A stretch of 64,000 nucleotides of DNA from Acidimicrobiales bacterium. GTDB taxonomy: Bacteria > Actinomycetota > Acidimicrobiia > Acidimicrobiales > Aldehydirespiratoraceae. Below, piece after piece: positions 48,225-62,140 of this stretch. The stretch lies in NCBI GenBank assembly GCA_029263175.1, contig JAJCXZ010000045.1, positions 1 through 64,000 of the forward strand, written 5' to 3'. Made by a program: the position numbers and the translations under genes. Within the stretch, counting starts at the first letter, position 1; every line of letters starts with the position of its first letter. Under the pieces are notes generated by a model. The model was not told where the DNA came from and made no database searches. It saw only the letters and a program-made list of their open reading frames with translations.

Positions 48225-49418
48225 TCAGTCGCGGTTCAGCGCGTCGCCGATCGAAGCCGAAGCCGCAGCGATACCGGAGCTTCCCATGGGTGCCGCCATC
48301 GAACTCAATGCTGCTTCGACGGTGGCCAGCGTGCCCAGGATCATCGGCGGGTTGTGCCACCCCATGTGTCCGATCCGAAACGTGCGGTCAGGCATCGTCA
48401 CCATCCCGATACCGAGGGTGAGACCGGCTTGCTCAGCGCATCGGCGACGGAGCTCGGTGGCATCAATGTCGCCCGTCTGCACGGTGGTGACGGCATTCGA
48501 TCGGTGCGCGGGGCTGGCGATGTTGAGCGACAGGCCGCCCGGCGTCGCCCATGCCGACACGGCGGCGCGGACCGCATCGGCATGCGCCTGATGCCGAGCC
48601 CACACCGCATCGAGGCCCCCCTCGTCGTCGATGAGCCCGAGGGCAGCATCCAACGCGTGGAGATGAGCGACCGGTGGTGTACCGGAGAAGATCTCGTAGA
48701 ACATCTGGGGATCGATCCGCTTCGACCAGTCGAGATAGCTGACTCGTGGCCGATCCGGGTCCATGGCCGAGATGGCCCGCTCCCCCGCCCACACGAAGCC
48801 GAGGCCGGGCGGGCACATGAGACCCTTCTGGGATGCGCCGACGGTGAGGTCGACCCCCCACTCGTCCATCTCGTATCGGTCACAACCAAGGGATGCGATG
48901 CAATCCACCATCAGTAGGGCCGGGTGATCGGCGGCATCGATCGCGGCACGCAACGCGGGGATGTCGTTGTGCACCGAGCTGCTCGTGTCGACATGAGAGA
49001 CGAGGATCGCCTTGATCGACTTCGCAGTGTCGTCGCGTAGCCGTGCTTCGAGCGCAGCGGGGTCGACTGGAGTCTGGAAGTCGCCGGGAAGCACCTCGAC
49101 GTCGACGCCGGCCAGCTCTGCCGCTACTCCCCAGAAGACGGCAAACCGACCAGATTCGAGAGCGAGCACCTTTTCACCGGGCGCCATGGTGTTCGCGATG
49201 GCCATCTGCCATGCGCCGTGACCGTTGGACGCGACGACGAACGCACGGCCCGAGGTGCGAGCGATGCCAGGCAGCCGCTCCAGCAAGCCGAAGGCGAGGT
49301 CAACGAGGGGTCCACCATAGATATCGGGCATGGGACGGGCCATCGCCGCGCGCACCGCGTCCGGAAGAATCGATGGGCCCGGTATCGCGATCATTGGAGT
49401 CCCTTGACTCAAGTCCAT
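48225..49418 (-). CDS. Class V aminotransferase (alanine-glyoxylate / serine-pyruvate type)
   Basis: A 397-residue PLP enzyme. It opens IPGPSILPDAVRAAM, has the cofactor segment ASNGHGAWQMAI, HVDTSSSVHND, VDCIASLGCDRYEMDEW and the Schiff-base lysine in GASQKGLMCPPGLGF, then the FRIGHMGWHN C-terminal motif. Likely donors are Ser or Ala and acceptor glyoxylate or pyruvate. ATG 49418 has GGGAG upstream. First gene of the run aminotransferase / carboxyltransferase / biotin carrier / ZIP. Confidence 0.88.
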   Translation of the reverse strand: MDLSQGTPMIAIPGPSILPDAVRAAMARPMPDIYGGPLVDLAFGLLERLPGIARTSGRAFVVASNGHGAWQMAIANTMAPGEKVLALESGRFAVFWGVAAELAGVDVEVLPGDFQTPVDPAALEARLRDDTAKSIKAILVSHVDTSSSVHNDIPALRAAIDAADHPALLMVDCIASLGCDRYEMDEWGVDLTVGASQKGLMCPPGLGFVWAGERAISAMDPDRPRVSYLDWSKRIDPQMFYEIFSGTPPVAHLHALDAALGLIDDEGGLDAVWARHQAHADAVRAAVSAWATPGGLSLNIASPAHRSNAVTTVQTGDIDATELRRRCAEQAGLTLGIGMVTMPDRTFRIGHMGWHNPPMILGTLATVEAALSSMAAPMGSSGIAAASASIGDALNRD

Positions 49419-49509
49419 TGTTGTCTCCCGTTTCCTCGTCTCGCAGTCGGCATGCACTGTAGAGCGACCGAGTCTGTTGGCTACGTTTCGGCGCGACAAC
49501 GAGCAGCCG

Positions 49510-50100
49510 CTACGCGATCGGGTTCTTGTACGTGTCGAGGTAGGTGATCTCGCTGACCGGAGGCCGCTCTGCGGGCTTGAAGTCGGTGCCCTTGGTGTAG
49601 GCGACCGGCAGCAAGCCGGCTTGCGACATGTGTCCGGGAATTCCGAGCAGTTCAGCGGCCTCTTGCTCGAGGCCGAGATGGATGGTGGTCAGGACGCTGC
49701 CGAGCCCACGACTGCGCAGCGCCAGTTGGAAGCTCCTCATCGCGGGGATGATCGATCCCATGAGACCGGCTGCGGCGTTGGTGAGGTTGGCGCCGCCGGG
49801 GGCGTTCTCCAAGGCATCCTCCATCCGGCCGATGATCAACGGGATCACCATCACAGGCACATCCTGAAGGTTCTGGGCGAGATAGTTCGCCGAGCCCATG
49901 ACTCGACCGCTTTGGGTCGCGCCGTCGGTCGCGGCCGCCGCTGCGGCCAGGTATTCACCGCCGGCGCGTCGGTAGATGTCAGCCAACACCGCCTTCTTCT
50001 CGGCGTCCCGTATCACCATCCAGCGCCAACCCTGTCGGTTCGACCCTGTGGGCGCCTGCACGGCGAGTTGGAGACATTCGAGCAGTACGGCGTCGGGCAC
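49510..50100 (-). CDS. Nitroreductase-family flavoprotein with unresolved start
   Basis: A 196-residue FMN protein from GTG 50100: LQLAVQAPTGSNRQGWRWMVI is the FMN/substrate segment and SRGLGSVLTTIHLG the second flavin contact. The family N-terminus is clearly present upstream in the same frame (TDALLSTTRAVRKRLDFDRE) but between the GTG and the preceding TGA (50170-50172) there is no ATG, GTG or TTG. Thus either translation starts at GTG 50100 with a shortened protein, or an unusual start, indel or read-through supplies the first helix. It is the last gene after the selenoprotein and its partner. Confidence 0.8.
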   Translation of the reverse strand: MPDAVLLECLQLAVQAPTGSNRQGWRWMVIRDAEKKAVLADIYRRAGGEYLAAAAAATDGATQSGRVMGSANYLAQNLQDVPVMVIPLIIGRMEDALENAPGGANLTNAAAGLMGSIIPAMRSFQLALRSRGLGSVLTTIHLGLEQEAAELLGIPGHMSQAGLLPVAYTKGTDFKPAERPPVSEITYLDTYKNPIA

Positions 50101-50169: not shown

Positions 50170-51180
50170 TCAGTACCAGGGGACCTCGCACGCCTGCCCC
50201 ACGTCCACCACGACGCTGACCGCTCGGTTTCGATGAGCACCGGCGCACCAGGTTGGGAACGTGAACGAGTAGAGCCCCGCTCCCCCGGCGGCCACCAGTA
50301 GGACATCATCGGCGGACGCGAACGACTGCCGGCCGTCTCGTGTCCTGGCCCGCGCTGCGATGTGCTCGCCGATCGACTGGCGATCGTGGCCGGCAGCGGC
50401 CAGCTCCGCGGTTTGTTCCGGGGTGATCGCCACCACCGCCTGCCCCCGGCCGAGCCAGGCGTTGTTCGTGCCGTGAGCGCAGACGGAGTCGGCCAATCCG
50501 TCCAGAAGGCGGGTGGGCGATGTGGGGTCGTCGGCGTCGGCTTGATGCGCAACGGAGTGCGGGGCCTCTGTGCCGATCACGGTGACCACCGACTGCTCCG
50601 GATCGAACCCGCGGCTGGCGTGAAGCGGCGTGAACGGGCTGTGTTCCTCGTCCTCGCCCATGCACTGGCCGAACTTGCCGCCGTGGCCGAGCAGCGTCAT
50701 GTCCGACGAGCCGGGACGAGCACCGCCAATGTTGATCATTGCCAGGCGCAGGGCTCGTCCGATGCTGGCATTGGCCCGGTGACCAGGGCCGAGGGCCCCG
50801 AAACCGGCCGCAACGCCGCAGAGATGCCGTGCTGGACCGTTCACGATGATCAGCGGCGCAGTGCCGAAGGTGGTGGCCTGCATCTCCGTCAGATCGAATT
50901 CGGGTTCCATGACGGCCCGCGCCGCTGCCAGCACGATCGGCATGTGGTCCGGGAGACAACCAGCCATGACTGCCGCGCCGGCGAGCTTCTCCACGGTGCA
51001 AACCCCCTGGAGCGGGCCCATGGTGCCAAGTGCGGCATCACCGTCCACGCCGGCTGCGAGCACCATTCGGTCGACCCGGCTCGGCGTCGGCACGACGACC
51101 GGAAGGCCATCGGTGCACCCCAAACGGTGGAGCTCCTCGACCGCGTCGAACTCGGAGTCGGCACGCAGGGTGTGGCTCAC
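50170..51180 (-). CDS. Conserved protein of unknown function, partner of the UGSC selenoprotein
   Basis: A 336-residue soluble protein without signal peptide. It begins with a short helix then CTDGLPVVVPTPSRVDRMV, and has GTMGPLQGVCTVEKLAGAAV, MPIVLAAARAV, ATTFGTAPLIIVNGPARH, the Gly-rich GAGFGALGPGHRANASIGRA-like stretch, and NIGGARPGSSDM. I do not recognise an enzyme family; it looks like a conserved partner of UGSC proteins, from memory only. GTG 51180 overlaps the selenoprotein stop by 4 bp, so the two are translationally coupled. The nitroreductase frame continues directly beyond its TGA. Confidence 0.75.
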   Translation of the reverse strand: MSHTLRADSEFDAVEELHRLGCTDGLPVVVPTPSRVDRMVLAAGVDGDAALGTMGPLQGVCTVEKLAGAAVMAGCLPDHMPIVLAAARAVMEPEFDLTEMQATTFGTAPLIIVNGPARHLCGVAAGFGALGPGHRANASIGRALRLAMINIGGARPGSSDMTLLGHGGKFGQCMGEDEEHSPFTPLHASRGFDPEQSVVTVIGTEAPHSVAHQADADDPTSPTRLLDGLADSVCAHGTNNAWLGRGQAVVAITPEQTAELAAAGHDRQSIGEHIAARARTRDGRQSFASADDVLLVAAGGAGLYSFTFPTWCAGAHRNRAVSVVVDVGQACEVPWY

Positions 51181-51710
51181 CGGGGGCTGCCCTCGAGAGC
51201 CGCGAGCACCTCAGCGGCGACCTTCTCGGCGACCCGGCGCATGTTCTCGACACCCGTGCCGGCCACCGGATGAGGCAGCTGGACCCGTGGAATGCCGGGC
51301 ATACCGAACGCCGAGGCGACGAAGTCGCCCTGCGGCCAGAACTCTTCGGTGACCAGTGCGACAGCCGGGAGCCCTCGGTTGGCTGCATTCAGTCCGTCAC
51401 GCACGGTGCCGGTGGTGCAGCTCCCTCAATGCCCGTAGGCGGCCACGACTGCTTGGCACTCTCCGACAATCGTGTCGAGCATCGTGTCGTCGGCGATGGC
51501 GGACGCATTTCCCTTGTCGTACCGGGAGTACCGGAGCTCTGGTCGCAGCGCTCGCATGGCTCCCTCCACCTGATCGAGAAAAGCGACCGAATCCGAGAAG
51601 CCATTGGCCAGCAGGCCGACGGTCGCAGCACCGGAAAGGTCAGCGCTCAGCTCGTACGGGACTGCGACCGTCTCCGGTTCACCGCGGGGATCCAGGAACT
51701 CGATGGTCAT
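51177..51710 (-). CDS. UGSC-family selenoprotein (TGA 51426-51428 read as selenocysteine)
   Basis: Read through one in-frame TGA, this gene encodes 177 residues. The first 94 (TIEFLDPRG...VVAAYGH) and the last 82 (RDGLNAANRGLPAVALVTEEF...) belong together: the junction reads AYGH-U-GSCTTGTVRDG, i.e. Sec95-Gly-Ser-Cys98, the motif after which the UGSC (seleno)protein family is named. A Cys/Sec redox pair with a small loop suggests a thiol-based reaction; function is unknown for the family as far as I know. A SECIS-type hairpin follows the TGA. The gene lies 26 bp after hutH and overlaps its partner gene. Split into two fragments by ordinary annotation. Confidence 0.87.
51382..51421 (-). promoter_or_regulatory. 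Putative bacterial SECIS element of the UGSC selenoprotein gene
   Basis: Starting 5 nt after the UGA, outer stem GCUGCA/UGCAGC encloses an inner CCGU/ACGG stem with apical loop GCGUG. The loop begins 24 nt after the UGA and opens with G, within the usual range for SelB-bound elements. It is hand-folded only. Confidence 0.6.
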
Positions 51711-51717
51711 GGTTCGA

Positions 51718-51745
51718 CAGTAGCGCGAGCCGAGAATCAGTCCAG
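51718..51745 (-). promoter_or_regulatory. Possible internal promoter for the UGSC gene
   Basis: On the minus strand TGGACT and TACTGT are 16 bp apart at the end of hutH, with TACTGT only 7 nt before the ATG at 51710. No Shine-Dalgarno is visible, so a leaderless mRNA would be implied. Weak evidence. Confidence 0.25.
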
Positions 51746-53284
51746 GACGACGCCGAGCTGGGCCAGCGCTACCGCCGGTCGATCCTCCCGAAGGATCTCC
51801 TCCGCGGCCGCGAGCTCCGGCGCGAGATAGCGATCGGGACCGACCCCGTCGACCTCGGTGCGGAGAACCGAGATGGCAGCACCGGTGGACGGGCCCGGTG
51901 CCAGCGGGGCACGCAGCTCTGTCGCTCTGGCGGCGATGACGTACTCGACCGCGAGTATTCGCCGCACGTTGTCGATCACCTTGCGGAGCTTGCGAACCGA
52001 GGCCCAGGCCATCGACACATGGTCTTCTTGCATGCCCGACGTGGGCAGAGAGTCCACCGACGCAGGAGCAGCAAGGCGCTTGTTCTCCGACGCCATGGCT
52101 GCCGCGGTGTAGTGCCCGATCATCAAGCCGCTGTCGACGCCTGCCTCGGCGGCGAGGAACGGAGGCAATCCGTGGCTGCGCGTCTTGTCGAGCATTCGGT
52201 CCATTCGCCGTTCTGCGATCGCACCGACTTCAGCCAGAGCGATGGCGAGGAAGTCACCGGCGAAGCCCAGCGGGGCCCCGTGGAAGTTGCCGCACGACTC
52301 CACCCGACCGTCGGCCAGAACCATCGGATTGTCGATCGCGGAGGCGAGTTCGAATCCCGCGACGCGGCGCACATGGTCGAGCGTGTCGCGAGCGGCTCCA
52401 TGGACGGCCGGCGTGCACCGAACCGAGTAGGCGTCCTGGACTCTCGAATCGTCCGTCTTGTGGCTGGCCACGATCGGCGAGCCGTTCAGCAGCATCCGGA
52501 GGTTGGAGGCACTGACTGCCTGCCCGGGCTGAGGTCGAAGCGCCTGAAGGTCGGCCGCGAACGGACCGTCGGTGGCCAAAAGGCCCTCCACGGTGAGCGC
52601 GGTGACCATGTCGGCCTGCTGGAGCAATCGTTGTGAGTCGTCAATGGCGAGGCAGAGCATGCCAAGGATGGCGTCGGTGCCGTTGGTGACGGCGAGACCT
52701 TCCTTTTCGACGAGGGAGAGCGGTGCGAGGCCTGCAGCCTCGAGTGCTTCCGCGGCGGGGCGCCAGGCATCGGCGTAGAAGACCTTGCCCTCGCCGAGGA
52801 GGGCCAGCGCGCCGTGGGCAAGTGGCGCAAGGTCGCCGCTGGCTCCGAGCGAGCCGTACTCCGGCACCATCGGCGTGATGCCGGCATTGAGCAGGTCGAT
52901 CATGGCCTGAGCCACGAGGGGTCGGGCCCCGCTCGCGCCAAGCGCCAACGTGCGGGCGCGCAGAAAAATCATGGAGCGGACGACCTCGTGCTCGACTGGG
53001 TCTCCCATGCCCGCGGCGTGGGAGCGCACAAGCGCAGTCTGGAGGTCGCGGCGCCGCTCGGGCGGAATGGACACGTTGGCAAGCGCTCCGAAGCCCGTGG
53101 AGATGCCGTACTTGGGCTCGCCCTCGGCGAGCCGATCGACGACCGCTCGAGAGCGTGCCATCCGTTCGACGGCGGCCTCCGTCAGCGACACAGACGCGCC
53201 ATCGCGTGCGACCGCCACGACATCGGCGATGGTGACACCCGGTCCATCGAGGTGAACGTGGGGGGATGCGGAAGGGACGCTCAT
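51737..53284 (-). CDS. hutH: Histidine ammonia-lyase
   Basis: A 515-residue MIO enzyme that deaminates L-histidine to urocanate, the first step of histidine use. The Ala148-Ser149-Gly150 triad that cyclises to MIO lies in GSLGASGDLAPLAHG; YGISTGFGALANV and EKEGLAVTNGTDA are further HAL motifs. A related lyase such as ergothionase is possible in this fold, but the hutU, hutF and hutI genes across the divergent promoter favour HutH. Its start overlaps the iclR-type regulator stop by 4 bp. Confidence 0.92.
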   Translation of the reverse strand: MSVPSASPHVHLDGPGVTIADVVAVARDGASVSLTEAAVERMARSRAVVDRLAEGEPKYGISTGFGALANVSIPPERRRDLQTALVRSHAAGMGDPVEHEVVRSMIFLRARTLALGASGARPLVAQAMIDLLNAGITPMVPEYGSLGASGDLAPLAHGALALLGEGKVFYADAWRPAAEALEAAGLAPLSLVEKEGLAVTNGTDAILGMLCLAIDDSQRLLQQADMVTALTVEGLLATDGPFAADLQALRPQPGQAVSASNLRMLLNGSPIVASHKTDDSRVQDAYSVRCTPAVHGAARDTLDHVRRVAGFELASAIDNPMVLADGRVESCGNFHGAPLGFAGDFLAIALAEVGAIAERRMDRMLDKTRSHGLPPFLAAEAGVDSGLMIGHYTAAAMASENKRLAAPASVDSLPTSGMQEDHVSMAWASVRKLRKVIDNVRRILAVEYVIAARATELRAPLAPGPSTGAAISVLRTEVDGVGPDRYLAPELAAAEEILREDRPAVALAQLGVVLD

Positions 53285-54055: not shown

Positions 54056-55732
54056 ATGAGCACTCTCGATGTTGGAACACCGGAGGTCGGGGTCTCGGCG
54101 CCTCGCGGCACGGACCTGAACTGCGTCTCATGGCCCCAAGAAGCGGCCTACCGGATGCTGCAGAACAACCTCGATCCCGAGGTCGCGGAGAACCCGGATC
54201 AGCTTGTGGTCTACGGCGGCACCGGCCGCGCGGCGCGTTCATGGGATGCCTATCGAGCCATGCTCTCCACGCTCAGGACGCTCCAGAACGACGAGACGAT
54301 GCTCGTCCAGTCGGGCAAGCCCGTCGGCGTGCTGCGCACCCACGAGTGGGCCCCTCGAGTGCTCATCGCCAACTCGAATCTGGTCCCCGATTGGGCCAAC
54401 TGGGACGAATTCCGGCGCCTCGAGCATCAGGGTCTCACGATGTACGGCCAGATGACCGCCGGTTCATGGATCTACATCGGCACGCAGGGAATCCTGCAGG
54501 GCACCTACGAGTGTTTCGCGGAGATCGGGCGCAAGCGTTTCGGCGGGACACTGGCCGGCACCCTGACGATCACGGCCGGTGCGGGTGGTATGGGTGGCGC
54601 CCAGCCCCTGGCCGTCACCATGAACGATGGCGTCGCGCTCGTGATCGATGTCGACCAGCACATGCTCCAACGCCGTGTCGATCACCGCTACCTCGATGAG
54701 ATCGCGCCGGACTACGCCTCTGCCATTGCCCGGGTCACCGAGGCGAAACGGCTCCGCAAGCCGCTCTCGGTGGGGCTGCTCGGCAACGCAGCCGATCTGG
54801 TCCCCCGACTTCTCGCCGACGGCATCGAAGCTGACATCGTCACCGACCAGACAAGCGCCCACGACCCGCTCAGCTACATGCCGAACGACATTTCGGCCGA
54901 AGCCGCGGCCGAGCTGAAGGACAGCGATCCCCAGGAGTTCACCAGGCGTGCCCGCGGAGCAATGGCGGCGCACTGCCAAGCCATGGTCGGCTTCATGGAT
55001 GCCGGTGCCGAAGTCTTCGACTACGGCAACAGCCTGCGCGCCGAGGCGAGACTTGGCGGCTACGACCGCGCGTTCGACTATCCCGGATTCCTACCTGCCT
55101 ACATCAGGCCGCTCTTCTGCGAAGGGCTCGGGCCGTTCCGCTGGGTGGCGCTCTCGGGGGATCCTGCCGACATCGCCGCCACCGACCGCGCCGTGCTCGA
55201 GGAGTTCCCCGAGAACGAGGGCCTCGCCCGCTGGATCCGGCTCGCCGGTGAGCGAGTGGCATTCCAGGGACTCCCCGCCCGCATCTGCTGGCTCGGCTAC
55301 GGCGAACGTCATCGTCTGGGGCTCCGGTTCAACGAGATGGTCAGGTCCGGCGAGCTGAAGGCACCGGTCGTGATCGGCCGCGATCATCTCGACTCGGGGT
55401 CGGTTGCGTCGCCCTACCGGGAGACGGAGGACATGCTCGATGGCTCGGACGCGATAGCCGATTGGCCGCTCCTCAACGGGTTGGTCAACACCTGCTCGGG
55501 CGCAACCTGGGTCAGCATCCACCACGGCGGCGGCGTCGGAATCGGCCGTTCGATCCACGCCGGCCAGGTCAGCGTCGCCGACGGCACCGACCTCGCCGCC
55601 CAGAAGCTCGAACGGGTGCTCACCAACGATCCCGCCATGGGCGTCATCCGCCATGTCGATGCCGGTTATGAACGGGCCCGCGATGTGGCCGAGGAACGAG
55701 GTGTTCGGGTGCCGATGGCCCCAGAATCATGA
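54056..55732 (+). CDS. hutU: Urocanate hydratase
   Basis: A 558-residue NAD-containing hydratase that converts urocanate to imidazolonepropionate. Recognisable segments are [64 protein letters not shown] (NAD-binding Gly-rich loop), the conserved [12 protein letters not shown] and the C-terminal [19 protein letters not shown]. Length and motifs are standard. First gene of hutU-pdf-hutF-hutI-oxygenase; its stop overlaps the next start by 4 bp. Confidence 0.95.
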
Positions 55733-56298
55733 CCGTTCGCCCGATTCTCTCGATCGGCCATCCCGTGCTGCGAGAAGTCGCCGCCGAGGTAGTCGTTGAG
55801 GACATTCCCGGTGGCGAGGTTCAGAGCCTGGTCGACGATCTGATCGAGACCATGCGTGAGGCAGGTGGGGCCGGTCTGGCAGCAAACCAGATCGGCGTAC
55901 CCCGGCGGATCGTCGTGATGGAGGTCGGCGAGAACCCTCGATACCCCTACAAGCCACGGTTGCCGCTGACGGTGGCGATCAACCCGATCATCACGCCACT
56001 CGACGAGGAGACGGTCGTGATCAACGAGGGTTGTCTCTCGCTGCCGTTGCGTGGCGATGTCCGCCGCAACGTCAACATCCGAGTCGACTACGTCGATCGT
56101 GACGGCCTCGCGCACAGCGAAACGAAGCGGGGCCTCACGGCTGGGACCTGGCAGCATGAGGTCGATCACCTCGACGGTGTCCTGATCACCGACCGAGCCG
56201 CTCCCCAGTCGCTCTCCACCTGGACCGAGTTCGAAGCTCACCATCGAGATGCCTTCATCGAACGGATCACGGCATTCGTCGCCCGAGTCGGTTCGTGA
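55729..56298 (+). CDS. Peptide-deformylase-family protein inside the hut operon (candidate HutG substitute)
   Basis: A 189-residue PDF fold. All three family motifs are intact: GAGLAANQ (47-54), EGCLSLP (Cys102) and HEVDH (143-147), so a metal site of Cys and two His is expected. Canonical PDFs remove formyl from Met at nascent chains. Here the gene is coupled by 4-bp overlaps to both hutU and hutF, where HutG, the N-formylglutamate deformylase, is normally needed and no HutG is present. A role in cleaving N-formyl-L-glutamate is therefore proposed (inference). It could alternatively be an ordinary def gene. Confidence 0.88.
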
Positions 56299-60994: not shown

Positions 60995-62140
60995 GTGTCC
61001 GACCGCGACCTCAAGGCGATGACCGCCGACATCGAGACTCCGGTCTTCGAGACAACGGCATTCACCATCCCGCCCCCGCTCTCGGAGGCCACCGTTGCGA
61101 TTGTCACCACCTCCTCGCTCCACCATCCGGACCAGGATGACTTCGCGCCCGCCGACACGGGCTATCGCATCCTCGACGGAAGCCGCCGGGACTATGTGAC
61201 CGGCCACTGGAGCCCGAACTTCGATTCCGTCGGCTTTGCCTACGACATGAACACGGTCTTCCCGCTGGACCGCCTCGACGACCTCGCGGCAAAGGGAGTC
61301 ATCGGCAAGGTTGCCGATCAGCATCTCTCATACGCCGGCAACCAGTTCGAACTCAGCGCGGTCCGTATCGACAGCGGTCCGGCCGGCGGCCGCTGGCTCA
61401 AGGACCGGGGTGTCGACGTCGTGCTCCTCACCCCCGTTTGACCCCTCTGCACGCGTACCGTGAGTACGCTCGCCCACGTCTTCGAGGCCGAAGGTCTCGC
61501 CACCATCGCACTCGGTTCGATGCGCAACCAGATCGAACACACGGCGCCGCCGCGGGGTCTCTTCTGCGACTTCCCACTTGGTCGTCCCCTCGGTGTCCCG
61601 GGCGATGCCGAGTTCCAGCACGGAGTTCTCGCCGTGGCCTTTGATCTCCTCGACTCGCCCGAACCGGTCGTCGCCGAGTACTCCGTGAGTATCGAAGATG
61701 ACGAATCCGACGTCGTGGCCTGCACCCTCCCGCCCCGTCATGATCCGGATGCCCACCCGGCTGTCGACGAAGCTCGCGGGTTGCGCAACGCGTACGACCG
61801 GGGCGTCGAGCTCACCGGCAATCGGGCCGGAACCGGCCGCGTAGTCGATGCCGACGGTGTTCCCGACGCAATCGAAGCATTCATCCGCGTGGCCGAAGGG
61901 ACCCCGTGGAAGGTGGCCGGAATTCCCGGCAATCCCGCTCGGGTCAGTCAAGACATTCGCGGCTACTACGAGACCGCCGCATTGGCGATGATCGACCATG
62001 CTCCTTCCGCGTGGGCCGGCACGCGCTGGTTCCTCGACAAAACGGAAACGGGCAAGGCGATTCTTGCGGCCCGATCCGCCATGCGCGATTCGGGCGCCAA
62101 ACACGGCCACTGGTTCTACTTGGCTCCTGGCGACCGCTAG
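60995..62140 (+). CDS. GrdB/PrdB-like selenoprotein with U-x-x-C motif (TGA 61439-61441 read as selenocysteine)
   Basis: Read through one in-frame TGA this encodes 381 residues of the glycine/sarcosine/betaine/D-proline reductase selenoprotein B family. Before the TGA: VAIVTTSSLHHPDQ, YDMNTVFPLDRL, KVADQHLSYAGNQ and DVVLLTPV. Across it: TPV-U149-PLC152-TRTV, a U-x-x-C redox motif. After it: EAEGLATIALGSM and LFCDFPLGRPLG. Both halves are in the same frame and neither is a complete domain alone. Known GrdB/PrdB reductively cleave C-N bonds in clostridia; this stand-alone actinobacterial version has no GrdA/E or PrdA beside it. GTG start with AAAGGGGA. A hairpin follows the TGA. Confidence 0.88.
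61453..61469 (+). promoter_or_regulatory. Putative bacterial SECIS element of the GrdB-like selenoprotein gene
   Basis: A perfect 6-bp stem GCGUAC/GUACGC with loop CGUGA starts 11 nt after the UGA, so the loop begins 18 nt after it. Spacing is nearly that of E. coli fdhF, and G is at loop position 2. Hand-folded only. Confidence 0.65.

What the first reader, a model, noticed from the sequence alone, without database searches (positions are those of the whole stretch)
51177..51710. UGSC-family selenoprotein hidden as two short frames
Two adjacent minus-strand frames are in register across one TGA (51426-51428) and together give AYGH-U-GSCTTGTVRDG. Both sides look conserved, the cysteine three residues on gives a Sec/Cys redox pair, and a SECIS-like hairpin follows. 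The UGSC (seleno)protein family is known by name from microbial selenoproteome surveys, but its reaction is not. Finding it directly downstream of hutH and coupled to a conserved unknown gene gives a first functional context.
Basis: partly seen in the sequence, partly recalled or inferred. Interest (0 to 1): 0.92.

Follow-up and report, generated by a model that had tools for sequence, protein, structure and literature searches.

The report
Selenocysteine enzyme with constant gene partner
Two short open frames are really one gene for a selenium-containing protein of a known but functionally blank family, and comparison across genomes shows it almost always travels with one unnamed partner gene and resembles the selenium site of glycine/proline reductases, which makes its chemistry testable.

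Summary
At 51177-51710 (-) one 177-residue UGSC-family protein (PF24696, E 6.6e-41) is split by an in-frame TGA at 51426-51428. Sec decoding is well supported. The genome has tRNA-Sec, selA, selB and selD. About 58 orthologues (47-68% identity) keep the TGA. Cys (CGSC) homologues exist in named bacteria and archaea, and a compact hairpin after the TGA shows compensatory changes.

The 'hut' context is not conserved: none of 19 orthologous loci has hutH within about 8 kb. What is conserved is the next gene (50170-51180, no Pfam family): 100 of 103 UGSC genes have it on the same strand within 1.5 kb, and it is present in 20/20 UGSC genomes and 0/20 without.

The UGSC profile matches the Sec domain of the glycine/sarcosine/betaine reductase B family, Sec on Sec (hhalign E 1.4e-7, probability 94%). 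The AlphaFold2 model is flavodoxin-like, unlike the thioredoxin-like fold proposed in the literature. In five genera trxB and/or trxA lie beside the pair.

Best reading: the catalytic subunit of a two-subunit, thioredoxin-driven Sec enzyme. Mechanism and substrate are inferred. The family is known; pairing and GrdB kinship were not in the papers read.

The parts
51177..51710 (-). UGSC-family selenoprotein gene, 177 residues, ATG start, TGA stop
   Evidence: PF24696 E 6.6e-41 over 5-173; orthologues with the TGA
51426..51428 (-). in-frame TGA read as Sec95; Cys (TGY) in CGSC homologues
51390..51417 (-). SECIS-like hairpin; inner stem 51394-51412, loop about 51401-51405
   Evidence: pair counts with slid controls in window clade and other clades
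50170..51180 (-). near-obligate partner gene, 336 aa, GTG start overlapping the UGSC stop (GTGA); no Pfam or NCBIfam hit; invariant AGC (Cys75), D24-G25, R142, E176
   Evidence: adjacency 100/103, co-occurrence 20/20 vs 0/20, conservation, model pLDDT 86.8
51737..53284 (-). hutH, 26 nt upstream; local context only
   Evidence: TIGR01225 over cut-off; not conserved beside orthologues
49510..50100 (-). nitroreductase-family flavoprotein downstream in the same direction
   Evidence: PF00881; not conserved beside orthologues
48225..49499 (-). class V aminotransferase, BhcA-like
   Evidence: not conserved beside orthologues

Best explanation
51177-51710 encodes the catalytic subunit of a two-subunit selenoenzyme. 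The TGA at 51426-51428 is decoded as selenocysteine by SelB and tRNA-Sec with the hairpin just downstream (strongly supported). Sec95 sits at the end of strand 3 and the start of helix 3 of a flavodoxin-like alpha/beta domain, with Cys98 in the first turn (model). The domain is a distant relative of the Sec domain of the B subunits of glycine/sarcosine/betaine reductase (shown by profile), and it works with the protein of the next gene (strongly inferred). Inferred chemistry: the partner binds or activates a small catabolic substrate, probably a carboxylic acid or CoA-linked compound; the Sec95 selenolate attacks it; Cys98 resolves the intermediate as a Se-S bond; thioredoxin and thioredoxin reductase regenerate the selenolate. 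Substrate and exact reaction are unknown; different paralogues probably serve different substrates.
For: Sec: Pfam match across the TGA; tRNA-Sec, selA and selB, selD; TGA-bearing orthologues; CGSC homologues in Actinomycetota, Pseudomonadota, Myxococcota, Binatota and archaea; covarying hairpin; UGSC and tRNA-Sec co-occur over 198 genomes (84 of 95 vs 31 of 103, Fisher p 1.6e-17). Pairing: 100 of 103 genes adjacent, median gap 29 nt; 20/20 versus 0/20 genomes, often equal copy number, e.g. 10 and 10 in one genome; seen in haloarchaea and proteobacteria too. GrdB kinship: hhalign E 1.4e-7, probability 94%, Sec aligned on Sec; score 51.7 on match columns against a maximum of 22.3 in 100 column shuffles and 34.9 in block shuffles; canonical GrdB alone E 2e-5; reversed, partner and Trx controls negative. 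Fold: pLDDT 92.5, flavodoxin-like relatives. Thioredoxin: trxB-trxA-partner-UGSC in Arthrobacter and a Nocardioidaceae MAG, trxA-partner-UGSC in Nonomuraea, trxB near the pair in Yinghuangia and Variovorax. The glycine reductase reaction uses thioredoxin (PMC10298544).
Against: No direct PF07355 match to UGSC. The genome lacks the pyruvoyl subunit family of these reductases, and the partner shows no relation to it. The partner's fold has no confident solved relative. Trx genes are adjacent in only a minority of loci and not in the window clade. No substrate is implied by a conserved neighbour. Eight genomes with TGA-type UGSC lack a detected tRNA-Sec (mostly fragmented assemblies).
Confidence: 0.58

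Rival explanations
1. UGSC is a general thiol-disulfide oxidoreductase of thioredoxin-like fold, as the GOS selenoproteome paper suggested; the UxxC pair simply exchanges electrons with protein or small disulfides and the partner is its redox client.
For: UxxC motif; [quoted passage not shown] trxA/trxB beside some loci.
Against: Model is five beta-alpha units with flavodoxin/CheY-like matches; no profile relation to the operon thioredoxins but one to GrdB; a strict 1:1 partner and catabolic neighbours suggest a specific substrate.
Confidence: 0.2
2. Sec95 is a nucleophile in a non-redox reaction (lyase, hydratase or transfer), and the partner, whose model weakly recalls two-subunit fumarases, carries the substrate site.
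For: Foldseek top hit for the partner is a two-subunit fumarate hydratase, but E 4.7e-3 and TM about 0.3; neighbours handle acids and CoA esters.
Against: Conserved second Cys three residues on and Trx/TrxR neighbours point to a redox cycle; the fold match is weak.
Confidence: 0.13
3. The protein is a dedicated step of histidine degradation, because it follows hutH in the window.
For: 26 nt after hutH, same strand; divergent hutU, hutF and hutI nearby.
Against: hutH absent around 19 of 19 orthologous loci; many genomes carry several paralogue pairs elsewhere.
Confidence: 0.06
4. The TGA is a true stop or a sequencing error and the gene is broken.
For: Only that mechanical gene callers would split it.
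Against: TGA conserved in about 58 orthologues and in a paralogue in the same genome; sel machinery present; hairpin covaries.
Confidence: 0.02

Closest known systems
UGSC-containing (seleno)protein family (PF24696; NCBIfam NF041046)
   Same: Full-length match, UGSC motif, TGA with bacterial-type hairpin; one of the commonest selenoprotein families in marine and freshwater metagenomes (PMC2398784)
   Different: Window clade has GH-U and T-G-T-V-R instead of the commoner G/A-D-U and S-C/W-S-V/L-H; it lies before its partner, whereas 57 of 100 pairs have the partner first; below the NF041046 cut-off (96.9 vs 125 bits)
Glycine/sarcosine/betaine reductase subunit B and GOS 'PrdB' selenoproteins (PF07355)
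   Same: Sec followed by Cys at +3 in the GrdB-like set; profile homology in the Sec domain; thioredoxin link
   Different: UGSC covers only the Sec domain; no pyruvoyl subunit in the genome; partner unrelated to GrdE/PrdA by profile; present in organisms carrying many aerobic-type catabolic genes
Thioredoxin-fold selenoproteins (UxxC)
   Same: UxxC at a helix start
   Different: Model has flavodoxin-like order of elements; no profile match to operon thioredoxins

Membership tests
Bacterial selenoprotein | in-frame TGA with conserved protein on both sides | tested here: met
Bacterial selenoprotein | Cys homologues at the TGA position | tested here: met
   CGSC in 20 named loci and in several genomes of the order
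Bacterial selenoprotein | SECIS-like hairpin downstream of UGA with compensatory changes | tested here: met
   modest in the window clade, strong in other clades
Bacterial selenoprotein | selA, selB, tRNA-Sec, selD in the genome | tested here: met
Bacterial selenoprotein | selenium in the purified protein | not testable with these tools
   needs 75Se or mass spectrometry
UGSC family (PF24696) | score over Pfam gathering cut-off | tested here: met
   140.7 vs 25 bits
UGSC NCBIfam equivalog NF041046 | score over curated cut-off | tested here: not met
   96.9 vs 125 bits, with C written for U; filed in the broad Pfam family only
GrdB/PrdB (PF07355) | direct match to PF07355 | tested here: not met
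   no hit up to E 10
GrdB/PrdB (PF07355) | homologous Sec domain by profile comparison | tested here: met
   E 1.4e-7, Sec on Sec, with shuffled and reversed controls
GrdB/PrdB (PF07355) | pyruvoyl partner subunit (PF09338) | tested here: not met
   absent from the genome; partner unrelated by profile
Thioredoxin-like fold | thioredoxin topology | tested here: inconclusive
   model flavodoxin-like; no thioredoxin among listed matches, which is not an exclusion
Histidine utilisation enzyme | conserved linkage to hut genes | tested here: not met
   hutH, hutU and hutF near 0 of 19 orthologous loci

The most novel reading that the evidence does not exclude
UGSC plus its unnamed partner form a new class of thioredoxin-driven selenium (or sulfur) enzymes that cleave or reduce small catabolic acids without a pyruvoyl group, spread over Actinomycetota, Pseudomonadota and haloarchaea, descended from the same Sec domain as glycine reductase B and diversified into up to ten paralogue pairs per genome.
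Probability: 0.38. Interest if true: 0.78.

Novelty: new member of a known kind. Interest (0 to 1): 0.56.

Why it matters
[quoted passage not shown] A near-obligate partner, kinship with the glycine reductase Sec domain, and thioredoxin genes beside some copies turn 'unknown redox protein' into a concrete, testable two-subunit enzyme. CGSC versions in cultured Actinomycetes and haloarchaea allow work without Sec insertion.

Tried and rejected
Hut-pathway role: rejected as a general function. Rfam SECIS families: no gathering-score match in the window. Partner as a GrdE/PrdA pyruvoyl subunit or GrdB N-terminal half: no profile relation. Partner-UGSC gene fusion in L019: my script suggested it, but reading the frame showed a TGA stop between the genes, so it is withdrawn; the fusion reported in PMC2398784 (UGSC/Unknown_1) may involve this partner but its supplement was not readable here. 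PDB sequence searches for UGSC, partner and GrdB-like profiles gave nothing significant. Partner fold searches gave only weak matches (fumarase, chorismate mutase/YjgF-like, cyclic amide hydrolase). Clustering of neighbours found no recurring neighbour beyond the partner, only common catabolic genes (acyl-CoA dehydrogenase, SDR, amidohydrolase, enoyl-CoA hydratase). First hhalign comparisons with small alignments were weak (probability 7-22%) and became significant only with deeper alignments.

Full report
Observation. Reading 51177-51710 (-) with TGA as Sec gives one 177-residue protein, U95-G-S-C98, with the TGA at exactly 51426-51428. It matches Pfam UGSC over nearly its whole length, and the two halves match the two halves of the profile on their own. 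The two short frames are therefore one gene.

Is the TGA decoded? Seven lines agree. (1) The genome carries tRNA-Sec, selA and selB in one operon and selD, itself with one in-frame TGA. (2) A second UGSC gene with one TGA is in the same genome. (3) About 58 orthologues at 47-68% identity in the order carry the TGA. (4) Paralogous clades carry it too. (5) Homologues with Cys at the same place exist in Nonomuraea, Conexibacter, Embleya, Streptomyces, Pseudonocardia, Natronomonas, Methanobrevibacter, a Burkholderiales MAG and others; the search pattern asked for Cys, so this shows that they exist, not how common they are. (6) A hairpin starts about 11-16 nt after the TGA; in other clades its stem changes from C-G to G-C and from G-C to A-T in compensated pairs, and in the window clade one inner pair changes from C-G to T-A. 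(7) Over 198 genomes UGSC and tRNA-Sec co-occur far beyond chance (84 of 95 with UGSC versus 31 of 103 without). Relatedness of genomes was not corrected for in that test.

Context. hutH lies 26 nt upstream and the window holds a hut cluster (hutU, a deformylase-family gene, hutF, hutI). In 19 orthologous loci read over 11-17 kb, no hutH, hutU or hutF is present, while the gene at 50170-51180 is always next to UGSC. The hut link is thus local. The partner is near-universal: 100 of 103 UGSC genes have it within 1.5 kb on the same strand, median gap 29 nt (two loci are repeats of the same gene; of the three exceptions one is at a contig end, one has a partner about 4 kb away, and one is Methanobrevibacter). 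In 40 genomes the partner is in 20 of 20 with UGSC and 0 of 20 chosen as lacking it (one of the latter, G018, had a weak Pfam-profile UGSC match). Copy numbers often agree, for example 10 and 10 in G012. The partner has no Pfam or NCBIfam match. Cys75 in an AGC motif, D24-G25, R142 and E176 are invariant in 56 sequences.

Kinship. A profile of 102 UGSC sequences aligned to 18 GrdB-family sequences gives hhalign E 1.4e-7, probability 94%, placing Sec on Sec and running to the C-terminus. On match columns the score is 51.7, against a mean of 13 and a maximum of 22 for 100 column shuffles, 35 at most for block shuffles, and 15 reversed; four canonical GrdB sequences alone give E 2e-5. The operon thioredoxins give nothing. 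PF07355 itself does not hit UGSC, so this is homology of the Sec domain, not membership.

Fold. The model (pLDDT 92.5, pTM 0.86) has five beta-alpha units, with Sec95 between strand 3 and helix 3. Matches are flavodoxins, azoreductases, CheY-like and other Rossmann-like proteins. This does not support the thioredoxin-like fold suggested earlier (PMC2398784). These matches show a common arrangement, not a function. The partner model (pLDDT 86.8) has only weak matches.

Mechanism. In annotated records the pair sits with transport and breakdown of acids and CoA esters: tripartite tricarboxylate transporter binding proteins, CoA transferases, isocitrate lyase/PEP mutase family, HMG-CoA lyase, amidohydrolases. 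In Arthrobacter the order is trxB-trxA-partner-UGSC; the same order is seen in a Nocardioidaceae MAG, trxA-partner-UGSC in Nonomuraea, and trxB nearby in Yinghuangia and Variovorax. Glycine reductase is thioredoxin-dependent, and its chemistry couples cleavage of a Se-C bond to a Se-S bond (PMC10298544). I infer the same type of cycle here: selenolate attack, resolution by Cys98, reduction by thioredoxin, with the partner in the substrate-binding role that GrdE/PrdA play elsewhere. The genome has no PF09338 protein, so a pyruvoyl group of that kind is not available.

Verdict. A genuine member of the broad Pfam UGSC family, misread by ordinary gene calling. The window clade is distinctive (GHUGSCTTGTVRD, UGSC before partner). 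The family-level findings (partner, GrdB kinship, flavodoxin-like model, thioredoxin neighbours) were not found in the papers I could read, and the library is partial. Shown: sequence, conservation, linkage, profile kinship. Inferred: complex formation, electron donor, chemistry, substrate class.

Noticed in passing
window 60995-62140 (+), TGA 61439-61441: A second selenoprotein in the window: GrdB/'PrdB'-like, PF07355 C-terminal part, motif PVUPLC, 381 aa when read through, also split into two frames by TGA; three more PF07355 matches lie elsewhere in the genome.
   Followed up: partly
window 55729-56298 (+): A peptide-deformylase family gene sits between hutU and hutF, where one might expect an N-formylglutamate deformylase (hutG); it may have been recruited for that step. 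Presence of hutG elsewhere was not checked.
   Followed up: no
L167 7387-7956 (Paracoccus ferrooxidans plasmid pFER4): UGSC with in-frame TGA annotated as two hypothetical proteins, next to its partner and near selB: the same hidden-gene error in a public record.
   Followed up: partly
L154 (own genome, C3:15979-16917): selD of this genome contains an in-frame TGA, so selenophosphate synthetase is probably itself a selenoprotein.
   Followed up: no
G012, several contigs: One genome of the order carries ten UGSC and ten partner genes, suggesting substrate diversification.
   Followed up: no
L151 6028-6477 (Methanobrevibacter): A CGSC homologue without the partner in the 10 kb held, the clearest exception to the pairing.
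   Followed up: no
G119, G047: Fairly complete genomes (95-96%) with TGA-type UGSC but no tRNA-Sec found at the strict setting.
   Followed up: no
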